A stretch of 64,000 nt of DNA, taken from the NCBI GenBank assembly GCA_947034895.1, contig OX344763.1, positions 80,681,093-80,745,092 of the forward strand. Direction: 5' to 3'. The notes under the pieces are model-generated. The model had not been told where the DNA came from, ran no database searches, and saw only the letters and a program-made list of their open reading frames with translations. Positions 1 to 27,492 of the stretch are shown piece after piece; positions within the stretch are counted from its first letter, which is position 1, and the number at the start of each line of letters is the position of its first letter. Source of the stretch: Rhytidiadelphus loreus (Eukaryota > Streptophyta > Bryopsida > Hypnales > Hylocomiaceae). The position numbers were made by a program, and so were the translations under genes.

Positions 1-474
1 ATTGCTTACAATGATATACAATTTTGAATTCTAAGTAATAAAATTTAAGGTTTAGAGTTGAACTAATTTTAGAAGCTTAAATGTCAATGCAAATGACAAT
101 GTCAAAGTGAACTTCAACTTTAGCTCTTTGATAATAAGCTTCATACAATCAGTTGTACCACATATTTGATTTTGTTTGAAGATAGTGAAGTATTTGGAGT
201 AGAAAATAATGTAGAATATATTTCAAAAATGAAGGCACTGTAATATTCTCGGTAATATTGCAATACAAATGTGTAGCCACAATCATAGAAGGCTCGAAGT
301 TGGCCTATGTACAACAAAACAAAAACACTGAAAGCTACACGCTTCTATCATATATAATACGCTTCTATATACTAGGGGTTTGACATTATATATCCTTGGA
401 CGTAAACCAAATAACCAAAGGAGAAATAAAGTCCATCTTTAAATTCTCAGACGTCAAATTCATTTGGATTGTTT
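1..474. other. AT-rich stretch without recognised gene
   Basis: No coding sequence or RNA gene is visible. By position this should be the interior or 3' flank of the outer transposon, downstream of the split RING gene. No copy of the terminal repeat (GACAACCCTA-like) occurs here, so the left end of the outer element must lie before the window. Confidence 0.4.
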
Positions 475-1914
475 TTACTTCGTAGAAGAACTTGCTTCAC
501 CATGTAAAGGTTGAAGTGCCTCCTAAAGGACTATCTTCTTCTTTGCACGAGTTCGTGAAGCTAGTCCTTCCGCATTCAAAATGAATTCCAGGACGTTGGA
601 ATCTTGGAGAGCTTGTAGGGTCCTTGTCATTTGTGGAGAATGTGCTTCTAAAAGATAGTCCAATGCCTAACTTTGGTAATAAGGTCTATACGTAGAGTCC
701 ATGCAAGCCATGTTAGTCATGTCTTCAAGAGAGGCAAATTGATTGCAATCGGGTCCCCTTTTACCTTCATTATCCCAACGGTGTCCTTTCGGATGAGGAC
801 TCCATTTCAATTCTCCTGAGCTCTTCTCGAAGTATCCACCAAGGCACTGGTAGAAGAATGCCCTTCTCCCTTCATTGTGTGGACCTTTTCCCATCAACTT
901 CGGTGCCACTTTGACAATCTCAGTCGGGTCAGTTTCCCAATTCAATTGAGAGCTACTAGGTGCCTTTTCATCATCATGTAGGCCTTGATGCTAGCTCCAA
1001 ACGAGGTCACGACCCCACAATGTCGTATTAGTTGTCGTTTCAACGCTATGTTCCCAAGAAGGTGACATGTACGTCATCAAGTTGAACATGGCATACAAGC
1101 GATCATGAAATGGTGTTGAACAAAGTACACAACGTCGTCTAATGAGGCATCCCATAAGGAGGCATTGAGGATGGTACACATGTGCACATGACCCAAGAGC
1201 CCAACCACCTTCAGGGCCAAATTGCTCTTGACAAATGGGGCATTTTATATGGTTGAGTACGAAAGCTGCAGGTTGTGGCCATAGTAGCTTTTGGTCCTTT
1301 ACCTCCATGTGACTAGACATTTGTTTTGCATGGTCCCAACCCTGTTGTGCCCAATCTATAATATTTGTGTCTGGCAACATCGGCATGTTTTCAGGAAACA
1401 TGTCATCTAAGAGTGCCTAGGACGTGAGTCCATTCTCACGTTTAGGTAAAGCTGCAACAAAATTCTTTGAAACCTTATTTAATTCCTTGGCTATTTGCTG
1501 TGATCTGTCCACGAAGAGAATGCACGCCACCTTCCAATGGTAGTACGTGGCAACCAATTGATCCAACCGTCATTGAAGCTTTTCGTTTTGCTTTTCAAGG
1601 TCTCTTTCTTTGTCAGTCTGCCTTGATTGATGAACTACTGGAAATGAGAGTGAATCTTGGGTCCCATGAATATCGTTCGTGTTAGTGGTCGTGTCTCCGC
1701 CAATTGTAGTGAGGAACGCACTTCGATTATTTTGCAAAACCTTAGCACGCTTGGAAGGGGGTGGATGGCAAAGGACATCATCGGTAAGGTCCCCCACAAC
1801 TTTGTCTAGATGATGTGGATCATGGTCAACAAAAGCCTCATCCATATCCAACAAAGTGAAAGTGCCAGCCTGATTTTCTCGAAGGGCTTGAAGCTCAGTA
1901 GATTGTCATGCAAT
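475..1914 (-). pseudogene. RING-H2 coiled-coil protein gene, 3' half, split by transposon
   Basis: This is the C-terminal part of an intronless gene whose N-terminal part lies at 25688-26730; the 23.8-kb inner transposon separates them. The frame opens with a charged, Gln/Glu-rich helical stretch that continues the coiled coil of the other half. It then has a RING-H2 finger at about 1095-1245: CPIC, then CAHVYHPQC, then CVLC, giving C-x2-C...C-x-H-x2-H-x2-C...C-x2-C. RING-H2 proteins are usually E3 ubiquitin ligases, so a ubiquitin role is inferred. One frame runs to a probable natural stop at 475-477, but it is broken by TGA at 1906-1908 and 1570-1572 and TAG at 1417-1419, 991-993, 667-669 and 523-525. 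No frameshift is needed. The gene sits inside a transposon, so it may be an accessory gene of the outer element rather than a captured host gene. Confidence 0.7.
1907..1914. repeat. Target-site duplication, left copy (CATGCAAT)
   Basis: Eight bases, CATGCAAT, lie directly outside the transposon end CAGGATTGTCT. The same eight bases lie outside the other end at 25688-25695. Deleting the insert and one copy joins the two halves of the RING gene in the same codon phase, which supports these as the insertion duplication. Confidence 0.85.
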
Positions 1915-2150
1915 CAGGATTGTCTACCCGGACAACTCGACAACTCGACAAACTCGATGTCGAAAACGTCTAGTAGAGGGTCCTGTCCGTCTAATAGAGT
2001 CAACTTTACCCTTTGACTTTTTCGGAATTTACCCCCCATTTACCTAGGCTTACTTGGCTGCCATGTGGCAGCCACGTCACAAATTTAGGGCGACTTCGGG
2101 TGGGGGCGACTTCGGGTAGGGGAGACCGCGGGTAGGGGCAAATTCTATAC
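1915..2150. repeat. Left terminal inverted repeat and subterminal GGCGAC repeats
   Basis: The first ~175 bases match the outer element's end (27492 going leftward) at close to 90% by eye, including shared GTCTAATAGAGTCAAC and TTTACCTAGGCTTA blocks. They are followed by three copies of GGGCGACTTCGGGT-like sequence at about 2088-2140. The match to the inner element's own right end is weaker beyond the first 11 bases. Confidence 0.75.
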
Positions 2151-2529
2151 TACAATTCAAAACTGCCACTTTTGTTGCATTCATCCAAAAAAATAGATTT
2201 TCTTTTTAAGAATCTAACCGGAAGATCTTGTACTTCACTTGTCTAAGATCACATGGTAAAAATTTCATGAAGTTTGACCGTATAGATTGGAAGATATTAA
2301 CAATCAAAGTTGGAAAGAAAAAATTCTGAACTGTGACCTGCAATTTCAGTTGACTTTGACTGTCATTTGTGGAAACTTTTTGCACTACATACTTTGAATT
2401 AAAAGACACATATGTTGAATAAAAAAGTTGAAAGTCTAGGGAAAAATATTCACTAATAAAAGCACTTGATTTGCATTCTTTAACCCCTAGAGGACCATTG
2501 TCCCTTTGGTTGACAAATTGGATTTTGGG

Positions 2530-3480
2530 CATGTACCTACAGTCTCATTTTTTGTCATAATTTTTTGAAACTTTTTTTAAAGATAGAAAAACTAATTATC
2601 TTTGTGGAAATATAATGTTTTCTCAAGTGGTGCCTAGGAACAAAAGTTGTCCCCAAATAAGTTCAAAACAAAGGCAACAAAAAAAAATTCAAAAATTTTA
2701 ATTTTTTTTCCTCATATATTATATTTTTTTTCTCAACGGAAAGCTTTGATTCATTTCATTTGGATAAGTGGTGTGAAAGTTATAGACAATCTTGTTTTTC
2801 TAGCAATCTAAGAATCTTCTTCAAAAGATAACTTGCAAGATTCATTTCTGAAATTTATTCCACACATTTTTATACTAATTATGTATAAGATCCTATAGTT
2901 AGACGATTAGACGTGCAAAAGAAACAATTTCCAAATTTTTTACTCTTTGCAATAGAAATGGCAATTTTGAATGTTTTTTGGCAAGAAAAAGGCCTTGGTC
3001 CTTTAGGGGTTAAGAAATTTTAAAGTAGAAGTAGGTCCAAGATTGAACAAAAAAATTAAATTGTTAAGAGCTCTAAGATGGAATTGAAACGCAATAATTC
3101 CAATGATGAGATTGTTCTAGTGAGCAAATTTAACCTTGTCAAATAAATTTTTAGAAAAATTGTGAAAATTGCATTAAAAAATGAACCTTCTAAGTTTTGT
3201 TTTCAAGAAAATGCTAAGTTTGTCCAAAAAACAAGATTGTCCATAACTTTTGCATTACTAGTCCAATTACAATGAATCAAAGCTTCACATGTAGACAAAA
3301 ATATAATAATTGAGGTGTCCACTGACCTCCATTTTTGGCTTTAGGGTGGCATAACTTTGTCTTCCAAACACTAATAGAAAAAATGTTATATTCCTACAAA
3401 GATGATATATTCTTCTGTCTTCAAAAAAAGTTTCAAAAAATCACAATGAGAATTGAGACTCTAGGCATTATGTAAACTGA
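2530..3480. repeat. Long imperfect inverted repeat in left arm
   Basis: About 2530-2900 reads as the reverse complement of about 3130-3480. Paired blocks are AAACTTTTTTTAAAGATAG (about 2570) with its partner near 3425, and AGCTTTGATTCATT (about 2742) with the inverted form near 3275. The pairing is imperfect. AT-rich blocks near 3065-3120 are also found inverted at about 24890-24945 in the right arm, so this may be the remains of a long terminal repeat rearranged within the arm. Confidence 0.55.
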
Positions 3481-3840: not shown

Positions 3841-3938
3841 AATACCAGAAATGGGGGGTTTGATTGGTACCTCTAGAACCCCAGTCGGGTCCGACTTGGG
3901 TTTTGAGAGTACTTGGTGGCACCCCCATTTTTGGTATT
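3841..3938. repeat. Fold-back repeat copy 1
   Basis: A ~98-bp palindromic unit. The arms are AATACCAGAAATGGGGG and its inverse CCCCCATTTTTGGTATT; the centre is AGTCGGGTCCGACT. One of nine such units inside the inner transposon. Confidence 0.75.
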
Positions 3939-3970
3939 CAAGAAAAAAATGAGGAATTTTTTTTTTTTTT

Positions 3971-4060
3971 ACTCAAAACAGGGGGTCTAGATGGAACCTT
4001 GAAGAACCAAGACGGGTCCGACTGAGGTTTTTGGAGTACTTGGTGCTACCCCTCATTTTG
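3971..4060. repeat. Fold-back repeat copy 2 (decayed)
   Basis: Same design as the copy just upstream: AAACAGGGGG left arm, ACGGGTCCGACT centre and CCCCTCATTTTG right arm. The pairing is weaker because of substitutions. Confidence 0.6.
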
Positions 4061-4878
4061 ATATTTTAACAAATTCAATTTTATTTATTTTTTGACCAAG
4101 AACATGATGTTATAGTAAAAGGTATATGGGGTGTTTATGGTGAATACAATGACAGACCACTAGCTTTTTCATGTCCATATATTAATTCTAAACAAGAATG
4201 CTACATGTTTCATCTTTGTAATCTTCAATCTTCGGAAATTTTTTTGGTGAAAAAATGTATAATTGCCCTCGAACCGTGAATCCTGTAAATTTGGGATTTA
4301 GGATACATGGGAGTTCATTTGAAGAAACGACGTTCACTTACAATTTTTTTCCAAAATTCTTAGGGCAACAACTACTTTTTTTTAAGTCAAACAAATATCA
4401 CAAAAAATAAAACTTTGAAGTGGGACAAATGAAGACAAAAAGTAGCCATAAAACACACAAATCCACTCATAATGAAAATCAACACAAAATACAATAACTT
4501 ACGAGATATGTCAATCTCGTGAGTCTAGGTAGCAGTAGACTCGGTTGCAAAATCATTGTTGGTAGAGGACTCAGAAGTCTCTCTACCCTCAGATGCGCTA
4601 ACATCTACAAACTCTAAAACATTCAATGCATAATTAGGTCTACGCTTCTTTGGCTTAGAAGAACCAAACTCCACGAAAGCCGATGCCAACTGCTCTGCAT
4701 AAACTGGCAAATCAAAAGACTTGTCTGGACTCAAAAGAAGCCTTCTTTTTTGCCGAGTTCCATCTTCCATCATCAACCTCTGACGGCTACACAAACACAG
4801 AAAAGTATGTTAAAATTAAGAAACATATATGATTTAATAGTTCATACGCACATGAAATAGAAATGTATGAAAACTTAC

Positions 4879-5895
4879 TTACAAGATTTTGTCTTCCGCG
4901 CGAATTTGTGAACTACGATGTCCATCGCATCTGGATCTTGAGATGCTGTAGCTTCCTTTGCCGATTCTGTAATCACCACGGCTGGAGTACTCTTTTGCAT
5001 GGGCAAGAGTATGGCATTGAAAATGTCCTTGTCCTCCTCCAATGCCACAATGTGCCGGCCTGTGCCACGGCAAGCTGTAATTGATGCACCTGTTACAAAC
5101 AATACACAATTGATTCACTGAATGATTTAGATGTAAAATATAAAACTCATTTAAAATTATGAGATTCAAAACTAACCAGTAGCTGATGTGCAGTCCAGAA
5201 CTACATCTCCTTCAACTGTTGTCCCTTCAATGAGGAACTGGAAAAACCTCGTGTCTTTCTCACGAGGCCCACGCCAAGGTACTCGCTCATTCATAAGCAT
5301 GGTATCCTCTGTAGTGTAGTTGATGAGTGTGTCATCTCGTAGAAGATCCACTTTGGCCTTCTTCAAGGAATTTGTTTGATGAAAAACAAATTCCGATTTA
5401 ACTCCCTTGCCGAGGTCTTTCACCAAGAGGGTGACTCCAAATTTCATTGTCTGTTAGCATTCAACCAAGAAAACATTAGAAATGAATTATATATTAGGTG
5501 TTGCAAATAGCCACAAAATTTAAAAAATCCTCAAAAGAATATACCGTATTTGAAGGGTCCACAGCCGAAGTCAAGTGGACACGGTTGATTCCCAACCACT
5601 CTTTCTTCTTCATTGTCGGGTATACCTCACACAGCCCAGCAATGACGCCCTTCGCATCCGCGCTCCACGAATGAAACACCACAAAACAACCATCATCTTG
5701 CAAATATTTATCTGCAAAATGAAAAGCCTCTTGAATTATCTCGTACTCCTTGTCGGCGTTCCATATAGGCACATGAGTGTTTGGGAAAGACACTCCAGGG
5801 ACTGGCAAATTCTCGTGGCAGTCAAAGAAAATTAGGTCCACTCTTGCCTGTCACATTACTTTACCACCATACTTCCGAACCTTCCCAGCCGAGAA
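4879..5895 (-). other. Beta-class DNA methyltransferase domain (motifs IV to I)
   Basis: Exon 5895-5545 reads VDLIFFDCHENLPVPG where family members have the strand before catalytic [D/N/S]PP[Y/F/W]; here DCHE replaces DPPY. It is followed by FVVFHSW, a typical motif V/VI strand. Exons 5450-5177 and 5089-4879 together give DTRFFQFLIEGTT, then VVLDCTSATG joined to ASITACRGTGRHIVALE. This matches motif X and the SAM-binding motif I/II region (family form DPFxGxGTT...G...GxE). The motif I join crosses a clean intron with GGT split 1+2. The reversed motif order is characteristic of beta-class enzymes. Confidence 0.7.
5851..5853 (-). other. In-frame TGA in methyltransferase exon
   Basis: The acceptor at 5896-5897 opens a frame FSAGKVRKYGGKVM, then TGA, then QARVDLIFF leading into motif IV. 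The residues before and after fit one continuous domain, so the TGA is best explained as a point change (for example from CGA). No short intron could remove it. Confidence 0.7.
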
Positions 5896-6914
5896 CTACA
5901 AAATAGAGGTGTGCAAACAAACAAGAATTAACACATTTTTCAATCATGCAGTTTCATAGAAAAATCATAATATTCAACAACGGAAAAAATAGAGAATTAC
6001 CTTGTCCAAAAAGTCCATGACTTCTTTGAAGCATGTCTTCCCTTCTTCTTCTTCATTCTCCATTACGTCCACAATGGAGACGTTGAGGATCAGCTCCTCG
6101 GAGTTCACTTCATCATCATCACCAATGACAATTACTTGTGTCCCCTGTGTGACCATTTCTTCTATGAGCTCTTTCAAAATTGCCTTCCTCTTCATACCAC
6201 TGCGTGATCCGGATTCCATTTGGGATCCCTGATCCACTGTTGAAGACGCTGGAACTTGGTCTGTACCTTCAACCTTCTTCTTACCCTTGCCTTTTGTCTT
6301 CCCCTCCTTCTCGGCCTCTTTCTCCTTTTCTGCCAACTTTGCTAAACGTTCTGCTTCCTTTTTCTCCTTGTTGGCCCTTATCTCTTGTTCCTTGCTTTCT
6401 TTCTTCTTGTCTGCAATTGTCCTTCGTGAAATGGCCCTTTTCTTCTGTATATCATTGAGATCAGCAAACTCGGGGACTTCCAAGTCAATAACACCAAGAC
6501 CATCAAAAGACTTTCGGAGCCCCACCTCCGTTGGATGAGTAAATGTGAGTTGGCAATCCAAGTACCACCGTCCACCGTTGAGATTGGCAATCGTGAAGGT
6601 TCGAAGTTGAGTCTGCGTGAACATGCACTCATCTAAACTTCGATCTAGCCACGACGATAGAAATGGTGGAAGATCCCCTCGTGCTAAAGCATTCTTTGCT
6701 ACTAGCTCAAGTTTCAAGTACTTGCCAAAACAACAAACTCAGTCCAACAATTCTTTGTGAATTCATATATTCATAATATCTGACGATGTTTAATACATTA
6801 CAAAAGGAAATACGTTCCTATTACTCAACCATGTCACAAATCTAACACAAATCATAAGCATCACATTTGTAATTTGAAATAAAAAATATGTCAAAATAAA
6901 ATAAAATTTCGAAA

Positions 6915-7005
6915 AACCAGAAGTCTGGGTAATGCAAGTAACTAAAAAACCTCAGTCGGACCCGACCAAGGTTTACTACATACCTTACAGTACCCCCATT
7001 TCCAG
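6915..7005. repeat. Fold-back repeat copy 3 in methyltransferase intron
   Basis: AAACCAGAAGTCTGGG on the left, CAGTCGGACCCGACC in the centre and CCCCCATTTCCAGG on the right. It lies in the intron between the exons ending at 7089 and starting at 6720. Confidence 0.65.
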
Positions 7006-8360
7006 GTGATTGTACATTTTTTCATTTATGGTTTAGGAATATTAAATCAAGTAATGGTTTAAAAAAATAAAAAAAATCAGAGACTTACCGGAAAAGAACT
7101 CTCCGCACGGCTTGCACTGATCCTTCATACGTAGAAAACGAATCAGACTTCTTGAAAGAGTTGGCCCCCTTCAGAAATGGGCCAAAACCTTGCTCCCAGA
7201 TTTTCCTTCTCCAACCTTCTATGTACTGTACAAGTGACTCCGGTTCCAGTGGAACCTCCATGTTGATTTGGAGGTTGTCCTTACTCACCACGTTGTCAAA
7301 GTACTCTTGAGCACCTTCTTCAATCTATAAAACAAGAAACGTATTCATGTAAAAATGGTAATCATAATCACAATTCAATTCATATACATGATAAAAAATA
7401 AGATTCAAAATACACATCAAAATGTTTAAAAATACTAATAACAACTTACCCCAAACCACCACACACACTTGTGGAGGAAGGGCAATAATTTCTCTTCAGA
7501 CACAGGCCGCAATGGAAATTTCCGAGCTTCCCGAGATGGATTGGATGAGTTCCACCACTTCATATACTTCAATTTCTGGGCAGGTGTTGTATTGCATGTT
7601 GCAATCATTTGCAACTTTTCAAGTGTCATCTCTTGAACCTCATTCGTGGTCCAATGCTTCTCCACCTAAAGAAATGCATTGTATATTTAGAAAACTACAT
7701 TACAAACTAGTCAATTAAAATCACAAAAGCGTGTCATTATAGAAATACATACCTCTTGTAGGAATTCAGGACCGAGAGCCGGGTTCGCCACAGCTAGCAA
7801 CTTTACCATCTTGATGTACAACTTTGATGACCTCTCTTGCACCGACCTTCATGGCATTTGCGATTCCTTGATCGGTTTTCTCTTCCAGTGGAGTAAGGTC
7901 ATTATATTTCCGTGCAGCAATATCTGCCGCTTGAGAAATCTCGTGCTGCAAAATTCCATAGAATCTCAATACAAAAGCTCATACAAATATACAATACCTT
8001 AATAATCCAAAGAAATATATAAATGTTTTCAAATATAAATTATATAACTCACCCGAAAGTTGAAAGCTGTGAAAACATCAGTAGGCATAGAGTACCAAGA
8101 CTTCCTTCCAATTTGAACACTACAACGCTTCCTTTCTGAAGGTCTTAGCATCTCCATGAACTTCTCCAACGGAAGAAGCCCATACTTCTGCATACGATAA
8201 AGTGTATGCACTAGATTGGTCTTTACGTGAGAATCCTCCGTTGACCTGAAAACAAGGCAACAAATTTATCATCAGAAAGTAATATGAAAATGCATTTTGC
8301 AAATTTCAAAATGTGAAAAATTAATTTGAAGTGAATGTAAAAAAAAATAGAATAACTTAC

Positions 8361-8917
8361 TTGTTAATATCATGCATCACCTGCATGACCAACTCGATTC
8401 TTCCTTTAGTTTCAAGAATGATGCAATCCACGGAGATGTGCCAATTCGGGTCAGCAGGGTAGCGTCTATTAATGTGACTCATCCAAGAAATCCGACGGTG
8501 ATTTCCGTCGCACACAAAGAACTTCAAGTTCTTCATGAATTTCAGCTCAGGCTTTGATTCCACAAACATGTTGAAATCATCGTTTGCTTGCTTCCAAAAC
8601 GGATCCCACTTGTTCACCTCGTCCACTGTGAAATGTGAACTTTCTCCAGCCTCATTCGTTGTAGAGACATAGAACACCGCAGCCCCTTCACGGTAACCAT
8701 GAACAAACTCTTGTTCAAGTTTTATCAAGTCCGAAGACAGTGTTGGCCTGACCATGGACATTGGCACAAGCCTGCAAAGCGGAATTCGTAGACGTGAGTG
8801 CTTCTCTGGCTTTATTCTCAAACTAGAAATGGTTGCAACGGAGTCAACCTTCTGCAAACGCCGAAGCTCATCTTCCAGCAATTCTCTCTCTTCCTCAGCA
8901 TCGTCAATGTCTTCCAT
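8361..8917 (-). other. ParB/Srx-like domain of the methyltransferase gene
   Basis: The exon reads IPLCRLVPMSMVRP near its start, like the IPLxxIxPNPxQPR strand of ParB-type domains. It later has FVCDGNHRRISWMSHI, matching the ParB box DGxHRxxA that binds or hydrolyses nucleotide. The following exon (8245-8053) is helical, where ParB proteins carry their DNA-binding helix-turn-helix; that role is inferred. Confidence 0.68.
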
Positions 8918-9264
8918 CTGAAAATCTTCTTCCACTTCACCTTCAATCTGGGGTTGTTGTGTCTCATTGTCTCCTGGAGTATCCTAGTGTTGTTCCTCTT
9001 GTGACAAAAGTATTGGAGATTCCTCAATCTGCAAGGACATTTGGAGTTGTCAAACATCTTTGAACAATAACATGAAATATAACAAAATAAAATAAAATAA
9101 AATTTCTGCTGAGGGTAACACATGTTAAATTTCAAGAGATAATAACTTTGGACACAAAATGTAATTGTATCATTCATATTATAAATGGAATATCATACCA
9201 AGATATGACTATTATTTCTAAGATATAACTCCAAACTCTCATTGCATAAAGAAATCTTTTACAT

Positions 9265-12200
9265 TCAATCTATGTAGACACTATCGTCTAAATCTTCACA
9301 TTGGTGTAGAATCACCACCCCGTTTCTACGTACTGGTCGAAGACAAGAACATTGACATGATTTAGGACCCCATGGACTTGAAATTGAGTCTGAGGACTCA
9401 GCCTCAGAGGTGCACTCTGCCTCAGAGGTGCACTCTGACTTTGAGCTATACTCAGTCTCTGAGCTTTCATCCGAGAAAAGTGGCATCCTTCGTTTCCTTT
9501 TTTTGGATTCACTAATACAACTTTGCATGGGCACCTCCAATTGATTGGCTGCACGATCACATGCATCCAAAATATCTCCCAAACTTACCACATCTGTCTC
9601 TTCTTGTGCTTGGGATTCACTGTACACTTCCACAATTGCAGGTCTTGGAGTCTGAGGTACCAATTCTTCTGCCACTTCAACCTCTAAATGTGTAGCAGGT
9701 ATAGCCGATGAAGAGGCAAGCTGAGTAAGAACATTGGTCTGTTCCATCTGTACATGCCAAGACGTACACATTATTACCATACATATTACATTCAAGTTTT
9801 AGTAATCAAGTTATACTAATTAAGTTTTACATTCAAATTACACTAATCAAGTTTTCACAACATTGGAAATACACATAACATGTCTGATCCAATTGTCGAC
9901 AACGCATCAGAAAAAAATAACTCATGCCGACACAGCTTCGAAAAGACAACATCGGCCAAAAAAAAATGTCATTCCAGAAACTCCTACCATATGGAGATCG
10001 GAAGTTGGGGTAGTGCAAGGTACCCCTAAAACCCCAGTCGGGTCCGACTGGGGTTTTGGAGGTACCTTGCGGTACCCCAATTCCCAGTCTCATACAAATG
10101 TCGAGAAAGCATCGGCAAAAATAATCTCGACACGAGGGCAACCATTATCGGCAACTCGGGCGAGAAAGATCAGATAGGCAACATCCACAATTTAAAAAAT
10201 AAAAATAAAAAGTAATTCAATCAATACCTACCGTATGGAGACCGAAAGTTGGGGTACCGCGAGGTACCCCCAAAACCCTAGTCGGGTCCGACTAGGGTTT
10301 GGGGGGTACCTTGCGGTACCCCAACTTCTGGTCTCATTACAATGTCAAGAATCAACCGGCAAAAATTAAACTCGACACGAGGGCAGCCATTAACGGCAAC
10401 TCGGGCGAGAAAGATCGGATAAACATCATCGGCAATTTTTTTTTAAACACAAGTATTTTAATCAATACCTACCGTATGGAGACCGAAAGTTGGGGTACCG
10501 CGAGGTACCCCCAAAACCCTAGTCGGGTCCGACTAGGGTTTGGGGGGTACCTTGCAGTACCCCAACTTCCGGTCTCATAAGAATGTCGAGAATCAATCGG
10601 CAAAAATTAAACTCGACACGAGGGCACCCATTAACGGAACCTCGGGCGAGACAGCATCGGCGGCAAATTTTAAAAAAAAAAACAGATCATTTAAAGACTA
10701 CTTACCCTATAGAGACTAGAAGTTGGGGTACCGCGAGGTACCCCCAAAACCACAGTCGGGTCCGACTCGGGTTTGGGGGGTACCTTGCGGTACCCCAACT
10801 TTCAGTCTCCTGTAAACAATGCTGACTAGGAGACTTCTCAGAGCTAGGCAAGATTAAAAAAAGCATTTCGTAGAATATTCTGGTTCTTCTGTCGATTCCA
10901 GACTTCTCAGAGGTCGGCAACATTAAAAAAAGCATTTCGTTCCTCTCAGATCGGTCTGAGACTGGAAGTTGGGGTACTGCGAAGTACCTCCAAAACCACA
11001 GTCGGGTCCGACTGGGGTTTGGGGGGTACCTCGCGGTACCCCAACTTCCAGTCTCCCCCTCAAATTGAACAACTAAGTATCGCATTTTCTTATTATTTTT
11101 CTTGTTGATTCCTTTGCGGATCAGAGGTGGATGCTACGCCTACAACTAGAAAACTGAGCGTGCAACAACAAAACAGTAGATTAGAGCTTGGAAAACGTTG
11201 GATTCATCATCGAGGTTGGAGCTCCGAATCCACGGATCATTACTGGATGCTACGCCTTCAACTACAGAACAAACCACATTAAAAACTGGGCTCGCAACTC
11301 CAGAGCAGTAGTTCAGAGTTTGTAAACAACCGGTTACAACTTCAATGTCGGAGGATCAGATAAGAAACCGAAATCTGAAGGTTCAGAGCTCGGAAACAAT
11401 AGATCACATCTCCGGGTTCAGAGCTCAAATTCAGCAGATAATATGTACGAGTCTAGACCAGTCTTGAAAACAGTAGGTCAGATCTTTAGTTAGCACGACT
11501 AGGTCCATTTGACTAATTCGGGGTCAAAAAGCAAACCCACGTCCTAGAGACTAGTTCGGAATGACACAGATCGAGTACACTTGGGATTTCAATCGACAAC
11601 CTTAACCTGAAATCGACTACAGCCACCAAAAAGACTACCGATCACATACATGTGAGCATCGGGATAGAATGTGTGACTAGATTCTGAATCAGGGCAGATG
11701 GATCACATTATCTCTGGAAGTAGATTGATTGAGCTCCACGTCGACATGCGGGTTAGAATTTTCGATTCTGTGAACTTCGGCATGCGCTCCGAAATGAACA
11801 ACAGGAAAATGACAGCGAGCATCGACCATCTCCGAAATGAGAATCAAAGGATCAACAATCATCTCCAGAAATTATAATGGACGATTTCAGAGCAACAAAA
11901 AGAGTTCAGTAAGCAAACTGTTTCAAACATGTCTTAATTCATTTTTGTGGCAATGAAACCTCAACTGAAGCATAGAAGCAAATGAATGAAGTTGAAACCA
12001 AGATTCTTACCTCAGTTGGAGTGTGTGCAGGTTCTGGATTTGTCGTTTCGTCTTCGGCTGAAGACCTCTTTTCTTCCCTGGAACGCGCCCTCTTGTGTCT
12101 CATACTGCCGACCCTCCCCAAAACTGCCTGGCGTGACTGGCACTGCAAGAATACAGGTAGAGATGATTGTTTAAGTTAGTGGTTCAGTTATATATTATAT

Positions 12201-14199
12201 TTCTTACACCTCCAGAAGAACTAGATAGCATGAGGGAATTGAACGTGTGGTTCACCGGAAACCGAAGGCTTGGCGGGAATGGCGGCAGGTGCATGAATAT
12301 TTTTCCGAGAAAGGAATTTTCCCGCATGCACTGGCAGTTCCTGATTTAGATAGAATGATCGAAAGTTTTGGCAGTTTTAGTAAAGGAAGTTTGAAAGATC
12401 ATGCGCCCCATTCTATCAGTCACTTGCCTATAAACATTCATCATGGAGGCTAAAAAAGGGCGTAACTATCCGGCTGTCCTTGAAACAGCCAGTCGGCTAA
12501 AATTGTCTGTTTGAAATAAAGATACTAATATCCTTAATTGCAGCTTCAAATAAGGAAATAAGCGAACCGTAATTGCAGCTTGAAATAAGGATACTAATAT
12601 CTTAGGCAAGTGTAAAAAGGAAATGGTCATATTTAACTTTTTTAGTATAAACCATTATACACTAATGTTCCAAAGAATATTTTGGAATCGGTTTTCTAAA
12701 TCAAAATCAGTAGATTTTGATATTTAAATTCTATTCGTACGGTTAGATCTATTAATATTGTCACCAATTATTTTCTATAAATTTCAAATAAAATATTTCA
12801 GAATTTCTTCCAAGTTCAATTACAAGTGAAATATTATTATTTTTCAGTGAAATGAGTTTGATTAAATTTGAAAAAACGTTATCTTCTTGTGGTGGTTTCT
12901 AAATTTCAATGACCTTTACATATTTCACCTCTTTTTTGCACTTTCTGTTTTTATCTAAAGTCCATGCAAGTATACTAGTTGACATATTTCTACATTTGTA
13001 ATTTTATGAATTTGTATATTCTAATAACACCAAATCCATCCAATAGATAGGACAACAACTAAATAAAATATCAACAAATATTAGGATGACTTTCATCCAT
13101 GCAAGAATGAGACTGAATGAAGGATCTGAATGTGCCGAACATCCAGGAAATAGACGTCGTACCGCTCCACGCTAAAGTACAAGTCAAACGAAGATATTTG
13201 TTCCTAATGTAATTCAAATATATTTGTAAATTTTTTAACTTCAATAGAATAACTTATATAACATTCTTTGAAATGAGTAACCATTCATTGAAATACATTG
13301 ATATTCAAATGAAAAAGATTGACCATTATTTGAAATATATTGATCATTATATTAATACATGAAAACTATTTAAGAATTTTCATAATTTATATCTTATAGA
13401 GAATCCTTCTGATATTAAACAATTCTTGAACATAAAAGGATTTTAGACAAGTACAAATGAATCCTTCTCACTCATTACCAATGTACAAGTTACAAATGAA
13501 ATGAACTTGCTAACATGTAATGGACATAATATGATGATTGTTGACAACCTGAAAGGTATTCACAGAACATTTAACCCATATCCCACATATTTAGTATTTA
13601 ATATTGAACCCTCTTCATTATACATAGTTCACATGCAAGTAATGTTTGTATGCTCCTATACAGAACCTACAATGAAACTTGCATTTGAAGTCATTGTATA
13701 AGGAAGAATTCACTTTTCCACGTAATCAATCCTATAGATTCAATGGTTATTGAAGGAATGAAAGGAATTTCAATGTGCTTACTTGTAGTACCGTCTCATC
13801 TCTGGGGTCCTCCGACATTGCTTGCTGTGAGTCCAAGCTTTGCACTTCGTCATTCTCTACCACACCGCTACCTCCAGCTTCAAAGCGAAGGACTTTCTGC
13901 AGGTTCCCTGGATTTGATTGAGCAATCTTGGACGCCACTCTCTTCGGACGATTCATTCTAGATATCCTAAGCGCTTTTGGAGATGAGAAATACAAACAAC
14001 TACGCCTCTTGCGTTTGCTTTTCAGCTTCGGAATAACAAATGTAACACTATGACTATCAATGGACTCATACATGAAAGGAATGGATGGAAGAGCCTCTCG
14101 AAAGCAAACGTTGTTTCCAAAAACAAGAATACGAGTGTCTCTTCCATGGAGAAGTGGAGAGTACTTATACTCAGAAGCACAGTAGTGGCATCCCCTCAT
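9265..14199 (-). CDS. Three-exon gene of unknown function, divergent from transposase
   Basis: Exons 14199-13783, 12142-12011 and 9747-9265 have consensus GT-AG borders (donors GTAAGC and GTAAGA; acceptors TTGCAG and TACAG). All three are multiples of three bases, giving 342 residues plus TGA with no internal stop. The protein starts MRGCHYCASEYKYSPLLHGR. It has basic clusters KLKSKRKRR, RHKRARSREEKR and KKRKRR that look like nuclear localisation signals, a Ser/Glu-rich acidic stretch with SECTSEAECTSEAE, and a short Cys cluster CQCSC near the end. No known family is recognised. It shares a 650-bp divergent promoter region with the transposase. Accessory proteins such as mudrB of MuDR are the obvious analogy, but no similarity is seen. 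It is the only gene of the element that is still open throughout. Its second intron holds five fold-back repeats. Confidence 0.6.
9993..11056. repeat. Tandem array of five fold-back repeats (copies 4-8)
   Basis: Five ~100-bp palindromes start at about 9993, 10236, 10477, 10711 and 10958, so the period is about 240 bp. Each has GGAGACCGAAAGTTGGGGTA-like arms ending in CCCAACTTCNGTCTC, inner arms CGAGGTACCCCC/GGGGGGTACCTTG and the centre AGTCGGGTCCGACT. The spacers of the first four units share GGCAAAAATTAAACTCGACA and ACGAGGGCA blocks. The array lies in the intron between exons 12142-12011 and 9747-9265. Open frames on both strands here are by-products of the palindromes. Confidence 0.85.
11100..11480. 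repeat. Degenerate direct repeat in intron
   Basis: GGATGCTACGCCTACAACTA at about 11129 recurs as GGATGCTACGCCTTCAACTA at about 11243, and phrases such as CAGAGCTC...GAAAACAGTAG recur further on. It appears to be a decayed tandem repeat of roughly 115 bp within the second intron. Confidence 0.45.
12143..13782 (-). other. AT-rich first intron of the unknown gene
   Basis: The intron runs from donor GTAAGC at 13782 to acceptor TTGCAG just above 12142. It is strongly AT-rich, with a short duplicated phrase CTTAATTGCAGCTTCAAATAAGG / CGTAATTGCAGCTTGAAATAAGG near 12530-12590 (described only, each imperfect). No coding frame of note was seen. Confidence 0.5.
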
Positions 14200-14850
14200 T
14201 GATTACATTCCTCTGACACGCCGCCCTGAAAATTTAAAAGTCATACCACCTTCACGCGCCGCCCTAAGAATGTAGAAGTAATTATAGCTAACATTTCATT
14301 TAAAGAGCTATCCTCCCACTTGGCAATGTACCCTTAACTTTCACAATAAGTATTCATAGATTGTTGTGAAAAAGTGGAGGCATCTTTCATAATAAGTATA
14401 ACTATGTCAGATCAATTTATTGCATTCACTGTAAAGGTCCTTGCCAGAGCCACCAAAATGCTTGTGAACGTGACCTTTAAAAATCGAGGGAATAAAGTTG
14501 GAGTGTGGCTGCTTTAGCCATGATCTATGTACCCATTTATGGGAAATAAATGTTAACCCAACTACTACATGTCCCTTGGTGGAAGGTATATGCTAGAGCC
14601 GCCTAAATGCATTGAATGCCATGCTTTATAATAGTGGTAGGGAATTTAATTTTTGGCGGCTTCTTTGGTAGCCCCTCTTAGACATAGTGCATGATAAAGA
14701 ATCCTCTATTCATGGAAATTCTGTGGTCTATTTTGAATGGATGTATATGCATACATGATGTAGTACTTAACTAAGTTCAGTCATTCCCCCACTTCAGTCT
14801 AAGTATCGGCTTCTTGAGTTTCATGAAATACACAAGTGTATTTCATCATC
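14200..14850. promoter_or_regulatory. Divergent promoter region between transposase and unknown gene
   Basis: About 650 bp separate two divergent start codons, at 14199 (minus) and 14851 (plus). Two similar phrases, GACACGCCGCCCTGAAAATTTAAAAG and CACGCGCCGCCCTAAGAATGTAG (abbreviated here as the shared CGCCGCCCT box), lie at about 14217 and 14264. No clear TATA box at a standard distance was recognised on either side. A shared region would allow both genes to be controlled together (inference). Confidence 0.5.
14823..14846. promoter_or_regulatory. Perfect palindrome abutting the transposase start codon
   Basis: ATGAAATACAC, then AA, then GTGTATTTCAT: two perfect 11-base arms with a 2-base centre, ending 4 bases before the ATG at 14851. 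It could act as a protein-binding operator or as a hairpin in the mRNA leader. Function is not shown. Confidence 0.6.
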
Positions 14851-16845
14851 ATGGCTTGTGTTAGAGTAGATGGTCATACGATACCACTTGTGTTTCCAGT
14901 TGAGGAGGGAGGATTTGCTAGAGTACTAAGTCATTTGCTTCATGTACGGTTCAGATTTGTTGAGTCTTCCATCTATGTTGAAGAAGAGAGGAAGTCAAAA
15001 TCCGGTGAGCACCAAGAGTCTGTTCCTGTTGTGAAGTCCGTAGAAGAGGGAGGCCATTGTTGGTACCTTGCTTCAGGAAACTACAGAGCTTATGGTCTTC
15101 CTCTTTCCGTGATAGCTGCATCAACTGAGATTCTAAGTCGCCAATCTGATAATTCGACAGTTGATATGCCATATGTCAACCATGCTGTTCTGTGTAGTCC
15201 TCCTCGTCAAGTTTTGGCAGTCCCTTCTCGACCTACAATTCTGGGTGCGGTAAAGGTTGAGCAATTACACCCCATCATTGAGTTGTCTAGCGAATCGGAA
15301 GGAGAGTCACCTGACCTTACTCTACATAAGAAACCACGATTTGTAGAGAAGGATCAAAACGAGAAGCATGTTGTTCATTCACTTTCTGGCACCCCATCAA
15401 TTAGTCCTGCAACGTCGTTGTTGTCCCGTCCTCCGTTGTATCCAAGTCCAGTTGATAGAGTAAGTATTATGGATTCTTTGAGGAGACTGAGTGGCATGCA
15501 TCGATCTAGAAACGAATTGTCAACAATGGATTTGAATGCCATTAACCACCATCGAGTGCAATTCCTTCCACCAGTGTTCAATGGAGATGTCATCTTCGAA
15601 TTGCCTCCATGTCGGGGGGCTTCGTCTTCATCAACAGCTAGGAATTTGGAAGGGATGGACAAGCGTTATGACGGCCATCCATGGTGCAAGGTATTGACCA
15701 CAAACATTCACAACTCTGATAACCTGAAGTTCCGTAAATCATACTGCGCTGGTCATCTTGCTTGTGTAAATCCAGAGTGTGATTACTTGAAGAGGGCTTC
15801 AAAATGCAATGAAACAGAGTGGACTGGTTACACGACCTTTCCATTTGTAGAAGGGGACAGTGCTCCTAAAGATTGTACGTTAGTTTGCAAGATCTGCAAA
15901 TTGACACTGACGTGCTTGCAGACATGTGATGTTAGAATTTACTACTGCTATAGTGAGAATCCAAAAATGACTAGGGCCGCTATTCATATTGGAGATCATT
16001 CTCATCCAGTAGCAAAAGGCATGTATAGAGATTCTACAGAAAAGATTTGTGGACTCATAGCAGAGCAAGTGGCAAAAACACCAACCGCAACAAACTCGGC
16101 AATTGCTCTCTCCACCAGTAAAGATTTCCTAACAACGTATTTGTTTCACAACGGTGAAGGAGAGAAAGAGATGTTGAAAGGACATGAACTGGAAGAGGTT
16201 ATGGATAGGTTTGAGTATTTGAGTAGTCCGAACATCCGTAATGTGATATCTTCCTTTCGCTCTAACAACCGTGGAGGCGTGATCGACAACATTATGACCA
16301 TGAAGAAGGAGTCAAAATTTGAGTTCATTCATGAGAGCGTCTTCCCAGGCCAAGGGAAGGAGAAGGTGTACATTTTCAAGATGCTCACTGAAGGACCTGG
16401 AAGTGGAGTGGACCTGGTGAAGCGCATGCAACCCGGAGGGAATCTAGAAAATGCGTGGATGATGTTTGACCACGTCAAGCGTGTGAAGGAGTGGACCACA
16501 ATGGCTTGCCACGTGTACGATTCCGATTACAAGAAAGTCATGACAATTGCAACATGCGATATGCAATCGGAAGATACTGAGGTACAAGTGTTTTTTTGGA
16601 AATGCTTGAATGCAGTCATGTCACGACACGGAGTAGAATATCCAAACTTCAAGGGGTTCATGGCAGATAGCGCTATGGCCAATTGGAATGCGGTTCGTAT
16701 CATTTATGGTAGCGGTTTTCCAAATCAAAAAATGGAAAATCGCGAGAGGACTTGCTTGTTGCATTGGAGTACTTCACTTCAGAAGCACACACAGAAGTAT
16801 ATCAAGGAAGCATTCCAACAACAACACAATGTACTATGTAAACAA

Positions 16846-16848
16846 TAA
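16846..16848 (+). other. In-frame TAA within transposase DDE domain
   Basis: The frame reads HNVLCKQ, then TAA, then KDAKSMGDAETKYLAIRSWW with no shift. The residues after the stop belong to the DDE domain between the CxxH signature and the candidate Glu. A single base change explains it. Confidence 0.8.
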
Positions 16849-17010
16849 AAAGATGCAAAGAGTATGGGGGACGCAGAGACGAAGTATCTTGCAATTCGGT
16901 CATGGTGGTTATCATCAGGAGCTACCACTGAAGATGCACTTCATCACTTAGACCATTGGCTTGCCTTTTGGCATTTCCGGTATAGACAATGGGGAGGCTT
17001 CATGCAAATG

Positions 17011-17503
17011 GTAAGCTCAACTCCAATTTGAGATTTAGTATGTTTTGCGACATTCGGAACACTATGTTTAAATTTTATTTAAATTTTTTTGGTTGCAATT
17101 CTGGATTAACAGGAGAATTTTAGAGTAACCTGAATTTATTTATTTATTTATTTTCTAACAAAACTGGAAATGGGGGTACTATGAGGCAACCAAAATACCT
17201 CAGTCGGACCCGACTAAGGTTTTGGGGTCCCCACTCAATACCCCCATTTTTGGTTTATGTAGAAGAAAAAAAATATAGAAATTGTCATTCGGAAGGATTA
17301 GGATGTCTGAACGTGGAGTTGGATTTTCTTGTAATGGTTGTTTCCGAAGGTTTAATATAAGGTGATCTTCAATTTTTATAGAATGACCTTGACTTCATGT
17401 GACTTGTACATTGCATTTTATTCTGTAATAGTCAAAATGCAGTGGACTATATCATGTTCTATTGAATGTGAGACCCATGAAGTATATTATGTTGCATTTG
17501 TAG
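17011..17503 (+). other. Intron of the transposase gene with fold-back copy 9
   Basis: The donor follows CAAATG and the acceptor TTTGTAG precedes GGTTTGAG, keeping phase 0. A fold-back repeat lies at 17161-17260: AAACTGGAAATGGGGGTA on the left, CAGTCGGACCCGACT in the centre and TACCCCCATTTTTGGTTT on the right. Insertion inside an intron would leave the protein unchanged. Confidence 0.75.
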
Positions 17504-18568
17504 GGTTTGAGTTTGGACGAGATGGCAGACATGCCTTCGTGCAACTTATCAGAAACCGTTCATAACAAGTGGCTTCAAATGTCTGGGAATCGAAGAAACA
17601 ATTTATTTGACGCCACTTGCGATGACAGCATCCGTGCGTGGATGCAAATGACAAACTATCGTGCTTACTTGAAGGGACATGCATCTGGATGTGGTCCATC
17701 AAAAGGAGAATTGAAGCTGAGAGCTGCAAGACGTAGTGGAGATCCTAAGAAAATCGCAGAGGCATTGAATACTTTACCGGGATCGGAAGGTGTGGGAACT
17801 CGCATACCCCATTTGGAAGGAGAAGAAGTATTTGGAAGTACAAAGAGGAAGTTGGACGTACCTATTGGCAATGCAGGAGATTCACATAGACCTGATAAAT
17901 TGAATTTTTCCCAACCTCGTGTCAGAACGCGGTCTACAATGGCATTTGCTGACTCCTGTGGGGATAGCAGTAAACAACCTGAAGGGAACACTTCTTCACA
18001 TGTGACAGTTGCTTTTGAAAGTGATTGTGACACTTCAAAGTGGCACATTGCAAGGATCAATCAGAAATCGAACGCAAAATGTCATGCTCAACAACGGGGG
18101 TCGAATATAAGGTGCACTGCAAGAATTTCGAAAGGGCAAAAGGGAACACCTTCTCCCACCTATCGCGGGAAAAAAGAAGATTACGGCACTAAGCGTGAAG
18201 TGCTAGCAGATTTTTGTTTTTGTGCAGATGATATTGAACGATGTGTCAAAGGAACTAAGCGAAAGTGGGTAATAGATTGGCTTGAGGTACCAGAGGAATG
18301 GCCTGTTTTAACTGGAACTCATCTAACTCGGGAAGAGACATTATTACTGCAGCATGCTGGCTTTCGACTTCAAGAGTGCCCTATCTTATCTCCTCGTCGA
18401 CTCTTCAATATATCCAACATATTCAAGAGCGTATTGTATGACCAACCACCTCCACCTGATGGTCATATGTATCCAACGGTCCGAAACAACCGAACAATAC
18501 GGCGAATCACAAATGCACCAACTATAGAACAACGGAATAAGTGGGAGAGTGCTGGAAATGTTAAAGGA

Positions 18569-18571
18569 TAA
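18569..18571 (+). other. In-frame TAA upstream of the SWIM finger
   Basis: The frame reads ESAGNVKG, TAA, ILGVTLLPFPGLGAIVSLE and then continues to the SWIM cysteines. The two parts share one frame across 17504-18907, so this is a nonsense change rather than the end of the gene. Confidence 0.75.
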
Positions 18572-18907
18572 ATACTTGGGGTAACATTGTTGCCATTTCC
18601 GGGGCTAGGTGCAATTGTGTCATTGGAGACCGGGGCAGAGCATAACCGAAATGTGTACCGAATTACAATGGGTATGTATCCGTCATGCAGTTGCCCAGAC
18701 TTTATTAGCATGGCTGTTTCATCTATTGGCGGTCGCCAACAGTACGTGAATTGCAAACACTTGTACTACTTGTTCCGCTACTTTTGCAAGATGAACATGG
18801 ATGAGGACAAATTCATTCATGCACCAAGTTATAGCTTCAATGAATTGAAGCTTCTTCTAGTTAAAGCAAGGATCATTACAATTCCAGAGGTAGTTGTGTC
18901 CACATAG

Positions 18908-24199: not shown

Positions 24200-25310
24200 A
24201 TGAATAATCACTAGAAGAGAAAGGAATGTTTTAGGTATGGTCTTAGCAATATAGTTCTATAATTTATGACCTTTTAGCAAATTATAGTAAATATTTATTA
24301 GAAATACATTTGTTTTCAATAAAAATTTACTAAAAATCTCCCTAAAGATCATAAGATTGTAGGACTATACTACTAGGTTGTACTTAAAACAACCTTTTCT
24401 CTTGTAGAGAATACATTGTTAGGATGTTAAGCTCTAAAGTCTCAATTGTCTTTGTAGCTTGGAAAATGGATTTTGGGCAACTTCATATAAGGTCAATTTT
24501 TTATGAAGCTTTTGATACTTTTTCATGATATAGATAAACTTACTAGTTTTATGGGATTGTAATTTGTATTTTAATTGGTGCCAAAGAGAAAAAGTTATAC
24601 CACAATAAGCCTAAATATAAATTATGTGAACAAAAGAAATTCACAAAAATTTGAATTAAAAATTAAAGTTTTTTTGTTCTCATAGATTGGAATTTTTTTG
24701 TACTTCAAAATCTTTGGTTCATTTTTTGGGGATTGATGGTATGAAAGTTATAGAGCATCTTCTTTTGTGAGCAATCATAGTATCATATTAAAAAAAATTA
24801 GGCATAGGATTCTTTTGGGCCACTCAAGTTTCAAACTTTTTCAAAACAATTAAACAAATAAGTTCAAAAAATTAACTTTGATTCATAGAACAATCTCACC
24901 ATTGGGATTAGTGTGTTTTAATTCCATTTTAAAGCTATTAATGATAAAGTTTTTTCTCTATAATGTACTTTCTTCTATTTAATAATTTTTTAAAGAATGA
25001 AACCACATTATTTTTAAATTTTAAACTTTTTATATTTTCAAATCAATTTTGAATGATGAAATTTTTTTAATTCAAGACTATAATGTAAACTTTTTTAAGT
25101 TAAGAAGATTCAAAGTAGTTTGCCAATATGTCACAAATGTGATTTCTTCACTTTGAACGCATTTACCTTGCAATCTATGCGGTGAAAGTGTTTGAAATTT
25201 TTTCCACACATTGTCATACTATTCTACTTTAAGATTCTACAATTATAAATTCAAAAATACCATTAATTTTTTTTTCTCTTTATACTAGAAATAGTAGTTT
25301 TGAGAGTTTT
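24200..25310. other. AT-rich right arm of the inner transposon
   Basis: No gene is seen. A block at about 24890-24945 (GAACAATCTCACCATTGGGA...) is the inverse of 3065-3120 in the left arm. A block at about 24716-24780 resembles the left-arm inverted repeat near 2745. These are traces of longer terminal similarity. Confidence 0.5.
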
Positions 25311-26879: not shown

Positions 26880-27492
26880 AAGCCTTAGGGATGAACATGA
26901 GAGAATGAAGATTCGGCGACTTTATATATAGGCGAACCCGGGTGTGGATGCAAAATGGATGCGTATGGGTCACCTAAGCGACCAACGGTTTTGGAGGGGC
27001 AACCAGCGGTCCTAGGGGGCGACCTCCGGTTCTGGAGGGGCAATCGCAGGTTCTGGAGGGGCGACCTCAAGTCTGGGGGGGGGGGGCGTGTGCAGGTGAC
27101 GAAGGGCGAGTGTGGGTCTTGGATGAGGGCAAGTGTGACCACAAGTGCGGGTAGGGGCGACCGCAACCTAGTACTCGTGTTCGCCTCAAACCTGTAGTCG
27201 CCCCATACCCGTAGTCGCCCCATACCCGAAGTCGCCTCCACCCGAAGTCGCCCCATACCTATGTTTGCCTCATACCCGCAGTCGCCTCCACCCGAAGTCG
27301 CTCCCACCCAAAATCACCCTACATTTGCTACGCGGCTACCACATGGCAACTAGATAAGCCTAGGTAAATGGGGGGTAAATTCTAGAAAAGTCAAAGGATA
27401 AAGTTGACTCTATTAGACGGACGGGACCCTCTACAAGACGTCTTCGACCTCGAGTTTGTGGAGTTGTGGAGTTGTCCGGGTAGACAACCCTA
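26880..27492. mobile_element. Right arm of the outer transposon
   Basis: Reading leftward from 27492 the end is TAGGGTTGTCTACCCGGACA, almost the same as the inner element's left end for about 175 bp. It then passes into GGGCGACTTCGGGT-like subterminal repeats (about 26975-27320), including a run of ten or more G residues near 27075. The end lies directly against the Ty3/gypsy integrase frame. The other end of this element is outside the window. Confidence 0.75.
26921..26930 (-). promoter_or_regulatory. TATA-like box upstream of the RING gene
   Basis: On the minus strand the sequence is TATATATAAA, about 190 bp before the ATG at 26730. It lies between the outer element's subterminal repeats and the gene, the expected place for a transposon-borne promoter. 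Confidence 0.55.

What the first reader, a model, noticed from the sequence alone, without database searches (positions are those of the whole stretch)
4525..9028. DNA transposon carrying a ParB-like/DNA amino-methyltransferase fusion
Seen: spliced minus-strand exons give a ParB box (CDGNHRRISW) followed by a beta-class methyltransferase with motif IV before motif I (VVLDCTSATG + ASITACRGTG). They lie inside a 23.8-kb element that also encodes a MULE transposase. Known: ParB-methylase fusions are typical of phages and bacteria. Fungal KDZ transposons are linked to TET/JBP DNA-modifying enzymes. N4-cytosine methyltransferases occur in bryophytes and rotifers. Inference: this may be a transposon lineage that marks its own or host DNA with N6A or N4C. 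I know of no described MULE with this cargo.
Basis: partly seen in the sequence, partly recalled or inferred. Interest (0 to 1): 0.92.

Follow-up and report, generated by a model that had tools for sequence, protein, structure and literature searches.

The report
Plant transposon carrying ParB-methyltransferase gene
A large family of jumping genes in a plant carries, next to its transposase, a gene that fuses a bacterial-type DNA-clamp domain to a DNA-methyltransferase-like domain, and it also carries repeated palindromes that could be the docking sites of that protein.

Summary
The observation largely holds. The window copy is decayed (frameshift, in-frame stop), but the host genome, a streptophyte plant, holds well over 100 relatives. 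Of 66 scored transposase copies, 44 have the ParB exon 5-10 kb upstream, all 44 head-to-head (chance about 1). The ParB-side exons are under purifying selection (median dN/dS 0.06-0.14 at dS above 0.1). A model from 75 sequences has the ParB/sulfiredoxin fold and the GxxR motif. The second domain is a PF01555/CcrM-type relative, but its catalytic DPPY is replaced by D-x-[PQH]-E-N-L-P wherever it could be read, so activity is uncertain. New here: a palindrome (AGTCGGRYCCGACT) forms an array between the two divergent genes and recurs at set places; of 565 genomic matches, 36 of the first 50 listed lie within 10 kb of such elements (0.3 expected), also in two copies only 60% identical in ParB. 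The MULE label is not confirmed (no transposase profile matches) and the element ends stay unresolved. The kind is in print: a 2025 Ectocarpus paper describes a ParB-methyltransferase gene opposite a Sola1 transposase. This is a new variant, in a plant, with a candidate binding site.

The parts
8361..8983 (-). Exon A: ParB/Srx-like domain; GNHR (GxxR P-motif) at 8495-8506
   Evidence: fold with 75-sequence alignment, Foldseek and VIA-align matches
8053..8245 (-). Exon B
   Evidence: GT-AG borders, no internal stop in 28 of 31 loci
7753..7945 (-). Exon C, frameshifted in this copy
7450..7665 (-). Exon D
   Evidence: no internal stop in 31 of 31 loci
7089..7324 (-). Exon E; join to exon F not resolved
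   Evidence: 3 of 29 loci with a stop
6001..6720 (-). Exon F, includes a charged linker between the two domains
5545..5895 (-). Exon G: methyltransferase motif IV DLIFFDCHENLP (5803-5838); in-frame TGA in this copy
5177..5450 (-). Exon H: first half of motif I (VVLDCTSATG)
4883..5089 (-). Exon I: second half of motif I (ASITACRGTGRHIVALEED)
4525..4786 (-). Exon J, C-terminal tail
14827..16848 (+). Transposase-like gene, first large ORF (673 aa here, 694-765 aa in seven relatives read)
   Evidence: no Pfam transposase match
17504..18907 (+). Transposase-like gene, second ORF, stop at 18569-18571; C-terminal CxC...CxH resembling SWIM
   Evidence: (SWIM E = 0.36, below cut-off)
9983..11056 (.). 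Array between the two divergent genes: about 241-bp units, each with a palindrome AGTCGG-GT-CCGACT (10036, 10280, 10521, 10754, 11000)
3883..4023 (.). Two further palindrome sites (3883-3896, 4010-4023), 3' of the ParB-methyltransferase gene
6954..6967 (.). Palindrome site between exons E and F
17202..17215 (.). Palindrome site between the two transposase ORFs; at the matching place in 26 of 30 transposase loci
1916..2142 (.). Left arm of a 228-bp inverted pair (87%); candidate end, not confirmed
   Evidence: common sequence elsewhere
27264..27491 (.). Right arm of the same inverted pair

Best explanation
This is a decayed copy of a large family of DNA transposons in a streptophyte plant. Its two core genes, a transposase (rightward) and a ParB-like/amino-methyltransferase fusion (leftward), are transcribed away from each other. 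Shown here: the two genes travel together; the fusion protein has been kept by purifying selection; its first domain has the ParB/Srx fold with the nucleotide-binding GxxR motif; its second domain is a PF01555 relative with an altered catalytic motif; and a palindromic sequence sits as an array between the two genes and at outlying places. Inferred: the ParB-like part recognises these palindromes, perhaps as an NTP-gated clamp, and puts the methyltransferase-like part on the element's own DNA. The result would be a self-specific mark, or block, that keeps the element active against host silencing and/or regulates the divergent promoter. In effect this is what VANC proteins do for Arabidopsis VANDAL elements.
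For: Linkage 44 of 66 head-to-head within 10 kb, chance expectation 1.4 of 66 within 30 kb; 59 of 100 listed motif-IV sites have a listed ParB exon within 12 kb, all 59 on the same strand and downstream of it. Selection: median dN/dS 0.136 (dS 0.1-0.2) and 0.063 (dS > 0.8) for exons A+B+D+E, 30 copies; 0.193 and 0.112 for the transposase ORF, 30 copies; one methyltransferase pair, 273 codons, 0.17 with dS near saturation. Fold. Methyltransferase: PF01555 down to E 1.6e-4, PHROG 4.4e-8, CcrM model 7.1e-5, CcrMI aligned over residues 31-260. Palindrome AGTCGGRYCCGACT: 565 sites, reversed control 0; 36 of 50 listed within 10 kb of an element (expected 0.32), with the upstream array also in two copies at 60% ParB identity; variant CGTCGGRYCCGACG 182 sites, 10 of 50 linked (expected 0.48). 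VANC precedent: PMC5735166 abstract.
Against: Binding and modification are not shown by any data here. Motif IV is D-x-[PQH]-E-N-L-P, not DPPY, so the domain may not methylate. 14 of 50 listed palindromes, and 40 of 50 of the CGTCGG variant, lie away from listed copies. The outer base pair is asymmetric in 165 of 912 sites, and in the window's E-F site itself it is mismatched, so symmetry is not strict. Palindromes inside long hairpins could be remnants of a hairpin repeat family rather than protein sites. No HTH was tested or identified after the ParB-like part. PF02195 itself does not match. CcrMI's best stretch has E 0.058 on its own, and unrelated T-cell-receptor chains follow from E 0.028.
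Confidence: 0.55

Rival explanations
1. The fusion protein is an ordinary part of the transposition machinery: it binds the palindromes to build the transpososome or to nick DNA, and the methyltransferase-like domain is only a structural or SAM-sensing remnant.
For: Motif IV has lost DPPY wherever it could be read. A Bacillus ParB-methylase was reported to have nicking endonuclease activity (PMC5512222 passages). Purifying selection is compatible with any essential role.
Against: The SAM-motif region is the longest nearly identical stretch between copies with about 60% identity, and canonical glycines are kept in relatives such as the moss protein (DIGAGTG). The palindrome array lies between the genes, not at candidate ends.
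Confidence: 0.25
2. Gene capture: the element picked up a host ParB-methyltransferase gene as passenger cargo, as Pack-MULEs do.
For: Capture of genes by large DNA transposons is common (recalled). 41 of 100 listed motif-IV sites have no listed ParB exon within 12 kb and 22 of 66 transposase copies have none within 10 kb.
Against: The linkage holds in one orientation across diverged copies, the gene shows lower dN/dS than the transposase, and a similar pair is in print for a brown alga. Both hit lists hold only the best-scored copies, so gaps are expected.
Confidence: 0.07
3. The palindromes are a separate hairpin/MITE family that inserts preferentially near these elements and have nothing to do with the ParB-like protein.
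For: Many are embedded in long near-perfect hairpins (arms up to 49 bp) with outer arms that differ between copies; 14 of 50 listed sites are elsewhere; some variant sites sit in an unrelated array with about 5.8-kb spacing.
Against: Same relative place in 26 of 30 transposase loci and an upstream array in two deeply diverged copies; the core stays GTCGG-NN-CCGAC while the outer arms drift.
Confidence: 0.3

Closest known systems
Sola1-1_Ec32 of Ectocarpus (PMC12477816; section on TE diversity read in full, other passages), with the green and red algal cases it cites (Iyer 2011; Petroll et al. on Bostrychia; neither seen here)
   Same: Giant DNA transposon (21.5 kb) with a gene on the strand opposite to the transposase coding for 1104 aa with a ParB-like and an N4C/N6A methyltransferase domain; self-binding and self-modification proposed by the authors
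   Different: Brown alga, Sola1 transposase. Here: streptophyte plant, transposase of unassigned superfamily, well over 100 copies in one genome, selection measured, and a palindrome array identified. Homology between the two could not be tested
Bacterial and phage ParB-methyltransferase fusions (ParB fold + PF01555; PMC12704722 and PMC5512222, passages read)
   Same: Same two-domain idea, GxxR P-motif, links to mobile elements
   Different: Here about 1100 aa with a long middle part and introns; PF02195 does not match; DPPY replaced by DxPE
VANDAL/VANC anti-silencing system of Arabidopsis (PMC5735166, abstract and outline read)
   Same: Transposon-encoded protein other than the transposase; targets often form tandem repeats that vary between related elements
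   Different: VANC proteins are not described in that abstract as ParB or methyltransferase proteins; here no effect on methylation has been measured
CcrM/DpnA beta-class adenine methyltransferases
   Same: Motif IV before motif I; CcrMI aligns over residues 31-260
   Different: Catalytic tetrapeptide altered; E-values weak (0.0025 for CcrMI with a profile, 0.07-0.09 for DpnA)

Membership tests
ParB/Srx superfamily | ParB/Srx fold | tested here: met
ParB/Srx superfamily | GxxR P-motif | tested here: met
   GNHR in the window; in the 120 listed relatives 107 have GNHR, 6 a GNH box with the R changed, 7 no such box found; motif from PMC12704722 passages
Canonical ParB (PF02195) | Match to PF02195 | tested here: not met
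   No PF02195 hit for the window or the 75 members of A3 at E <= 1. Weak hits: DUF1015 in 5, DndB in 1, DGQHR in 1 of 75 (ParB/Srx-like by recall), but also the unrelated KMP11 in 6 of 75
Canonical ParB (PF02195) | HTH and C-terminal dimerisation domains | not tested
   Exons B-E were not folded
N6_N4_Mtase (PF01555) | Profile match | tested here: inconclusive
   E 1.6e-4 to 9.5e-4, 21.4 bits for the first row against a cut-off of 26.7, 3 of 3 members match; the moss relative P0009 is listed with PF01555
N6_N4_Mtase (PF01555) | Catalytic [DNS]PP[YFW] motif IV (recalled) | tested here: not met
   DCHENL, DCQENL or DCPENL in the seven own-genome copies read (window, L069, L070-L074); D..E-type motif in 49 of 69 relatives, DPPY-like in 0 of 69
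MULE superfamily | MULE transposase domain (PF10551) | tested here: not met
   No match for the window ORFs at E <= 1 or for seven relatives and the second ORF at E <= 10
MULE superfamily | SWIM zinc finger | tested here: inconclusive
   SWIM E = 0.36 on one ORF, not listed for the longer second ORF
MULE superfamily | Terminal inverted repeats with 8-11 bp target duplication (recalled) | tested here: inconclusive
   Ends not located; candidate repeat is common elsewhere and shows no target duplication
Transposon ParB-methyltransferase accessory class (PMC12477816) | Two-domain gene on the strand opposite to the transposase within a giant DNA transposon | tested here: met
   44 of 66 head-to-head pairs within 10 kb; about 1093 aa conceptual length; exact element length not known
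Sola1 transposons | Sola1 transposase and 4-bp target duplication (recalled) | not testable with these tools
   No Sola1 sequence at hand; ends unresolved

The most novel reading that the evidence does not exclude
Plant transposons carry a parS-like self-recognition system. An NTP-gated ParB-like clamp loads on an array of element-specific palindromes and delivers a methyltransferase of altered chemistry (D-x-P-E in place of D-P-P-Y) that writes an unusual mark on the element's own DNA, telling it apart from host DNA and shielding it from silencing.
Probability: 0.3. Interest if true: 0.88.

Novelty: new variant of a known kind. Interest (0 to 1): 0.66.

Why it matters
ParB-methyltransferase genes in algal transposons have been noted, with the suggestion that they bind and mark their own element, but the passages read name no binding site. 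Here a plant genome offers well over 100 natural variants of the protein together with a matching, testable DNA motif, so one DAP-seq and one nanopore run could decide whether eukaryotic transposons use a bacterial-type clamp plus methylase to evade silencing. The DxPEN motif also flags a possible new chemistry or a dead enzyme turned binder.

Tried and rejected
Tried without gain: single-sequence AlphaFold of exon A (pLDDT 44). A search with the broken conceptual protein gave no hit among 7992 scored candidates, whereas profile searches with several copies did. Pfam and PDB sequence searches did not classify the transposase. Target duplication: the left flank 1-1917 is another repeat family (39 other copies scored, all ending at 1917), and right-flank repeats break at 27493 and 27763/27765, but the best copies of the two flanks do not lie together, so no empty site could be read. 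The inverted pair 1916-2142 / 27264-27491 looked like terminal repeats, but only 3 of 39 other scored copies lie within 25 kb of a listed transposase or ParB copy. A second, weaker inverted pair, 3010-3133 / 24872-24993 (75%), is tangled with other repeats at 2515-3465 and gave no ends. Viral contigs: 183 stretches matched a pattern, none was confirmed as a relative of the ParB part. A strictly compensatory reading of the palindrome was tempered: at the transposase-gene site the outer pair is A-T in 16, C-G in 7 and C-A in 3 of 26 loci, and at the E-F site it is mismatched in 16 of 17; genome-wide 565 + 182 symmetric against 165 asymmetric sites (376 expected under random pairing of half-sites), and several asymmetric sites lie close upstream of listed ParB copies.

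Literature: the listings showed no paper describing this gene pair in a land plant; only open-licence papers were searched, and only PMC12477816, PMC12704722, PMC5512222 and PMC5735166 were opened (one section and passages; passages; passages; abstract and outline).
Full report
What is there. The minus strand from 8983 to 4525 holds ten exons; all joins but E-F have GT-AG borders in matching phase. Joined with X at the damaged places and at the unclear join they give 1093 residues. The window copy is broken: frameshift in exon C, in-frame TGA in exon G. The window lies at C3:80681093-80745092 of a 407-Mb assembly with five chromosome-size contigs. That assembly has five matches to the LEAFY SAM family (best E 1.8e-27; 0 of 14 control genomes).

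Is it a gene family of a transposon? A search with exons A+B found 246 matches (2197 candidates, 142 scored); I used the 142 listed exon-A rows and dropped the 8 listed exon-B rows. The transposase ORF at 14827 found 66 (1687 candidates, 66 scored), so both counts are lower bounds. Of the 66 transposase copies, 47 have a listed exon A within 30 kb (1.4 expected), 45 of the 47 head-to-head; 44 are within 10 kb (5.2-9.6 kb), all 44 head-to-head. A DNA pattern for FFDC[PHQ]ENLP occurs 147 times (reversed control 0). Of the first 100 places listed, 59 have a listed exon A within 12 kb, in all 59 on the same strand with the motif downstream. The two domains and the transposase therefore belong to one repeated element.

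Is it kept by selection? In 31 fetched loci (window copy included, one copy present twice) exon A has an internal stop in 3, B in 3, D in none, and E in 3 of 29; the transposase ORF has one in 12 of 30. Pairwise dN/dS over exons A+B+D+E in 30 copies (L010 dropped as a duplicate of L069) has medians 0.40, 0.29, 0.136, 0.091, 0.093 and 0.063 in rising dS bins; the transposase ORF has 0.55, 0.26, 0.193, 0.144, 0.122 and 0.112. The high values at very small dS fit neutral decay after insertion, the low values at large dS fit selection in the active lineage. For the methyltransferase part only one diverged pair could be read (L069 against L070, 273 codons, dN/dS 0.17, dS near saturation).

Second domain. 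PF01555 at E 1.6e-4 to 9.5e-4, under its cut-off score, PHROG methyltransferases at 4.4e-8, CcrM model 7.1e-5, CcrMI aligned over residues 31-260 at E 0.0025, with unrelated T-cell-receptor chains following from 0.028. A three-sequence profile found 78 proteins: 69 family members, among them one named, from the moss Ceratodon purpureus, the others without organism name; then 9 proteins at E 1e-4 and above with PF01555, the named ones bacterial or annotated as methylases. In 49 of the 69 the motif reads D-x-[PQ]-E-[NG]-[LF]-P; the other 20 were not inspected; none of the 69 has DPPY. Own-genome copies read DCHENL, DCQENL or DCPENL. The SAM-motif region is the longest nearly identical stretch between window and L070. 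So the fold relationship is good, the chemistry is open.

A candidate binding site. Between the two genes lies an array of about 241-bp units, each with AGTCGG-GT-CCGACT. Nine sites with at most one mismatch lie at 3883-17215 and none in the rest of the 64 kb; one site at 922 has three mismatches. Copies of 93% identity or more mostly have them at matching places; the 84-88% ParB copies mostly lack this form in the 1.5 kb held upstream. Genome-wide AGTCGGRYCCGACT occurs 565 times (control 0). Of the first 50 sites listed, 36 lie within 10 kb of a known copy (0.32 expected) and 14 do not. Around the five listed ParB copies in that stretch there are 2-5 sites 1.0-3.0 kb upstream of exon A in all five, one at 7.7-9.0 kb in all five and one near -5.1 kb in three; two of the five are only 60% identical in ParB. 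In subfamilies at 83-89% transposase identity the transposase-gene site often reads CGTCGG..CCGACG; that variant occurs 182 times (control 5), 10 of 50 linked (0.48 expected), and some of its other sites sit in an array with about 5.8-kb spacing. Asymmetric forms number 165 (control 4), so symmetry is favoured (376 expected under random pairing) but not strict.

Transposase and ends. Element ends are unresolved.

What is known. PMC12477816 (section read) reports in Ectocarpus a 21.5-kb Sola1 element with a 1104-aa ParB-like/methyltransferase gene opposite the transposase, cites green and red algal cases, and proposes self-binding and self-modification. That is the closest precedent and makes this a new variant rather than a new kind. 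VANC proteins of VANDAL elements (PMC5735166 abstract) show that transposon-encoded proteins can act on targets that often form tandem repeats and cause loss of DNA methylation; that is the functional parallel I think most likely.

Noticed in passing
window 36977-64000: 27-kb array of a 176-bp satellite, 97% matches, perhaps centromeric or subtelomeric heterochromatin.
   Followed up: no
window 1-1917: A different high-copy repeat with a RING-like ORF (991-1416, minus; zf-RING_2 E 1.5e-5, just under its cut-off); 39 other copies scored at 95-96%, all ending at 1917.
   Followed up: partly
window 1920-2142 and 27264-27491: Very common repeat; the 39 other scored copies are 95-97% identical and all begin at 1920; possibly terminal repeats of another abundant transposon.
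   Followed up: partly
window 21535-22913 and 25329-25443: GC-rich tandem arrays (148-bp and 20-bp periods) near the right part of the element.
   Followed up: no
window 30370-33096: Minus-strand ORFs including a VGHTHDDIDALFGR stretch, another possible mobile-element gene.
   Followed up: no
L001-L008 (small contigs C62, C174, C245, C295, C309, C318, C426): PF01555 matches without internal stops on small contigs of the assembly, possibly bacterial contamination or associates.
   Followed up: no
G000 C1:11101589-11119051 and 11256435-11268076: CGTCGG..CCGACG sites at about 5.8-kb spacing, an unrelated tandem array, possibly rDNA.
   Followed up: no
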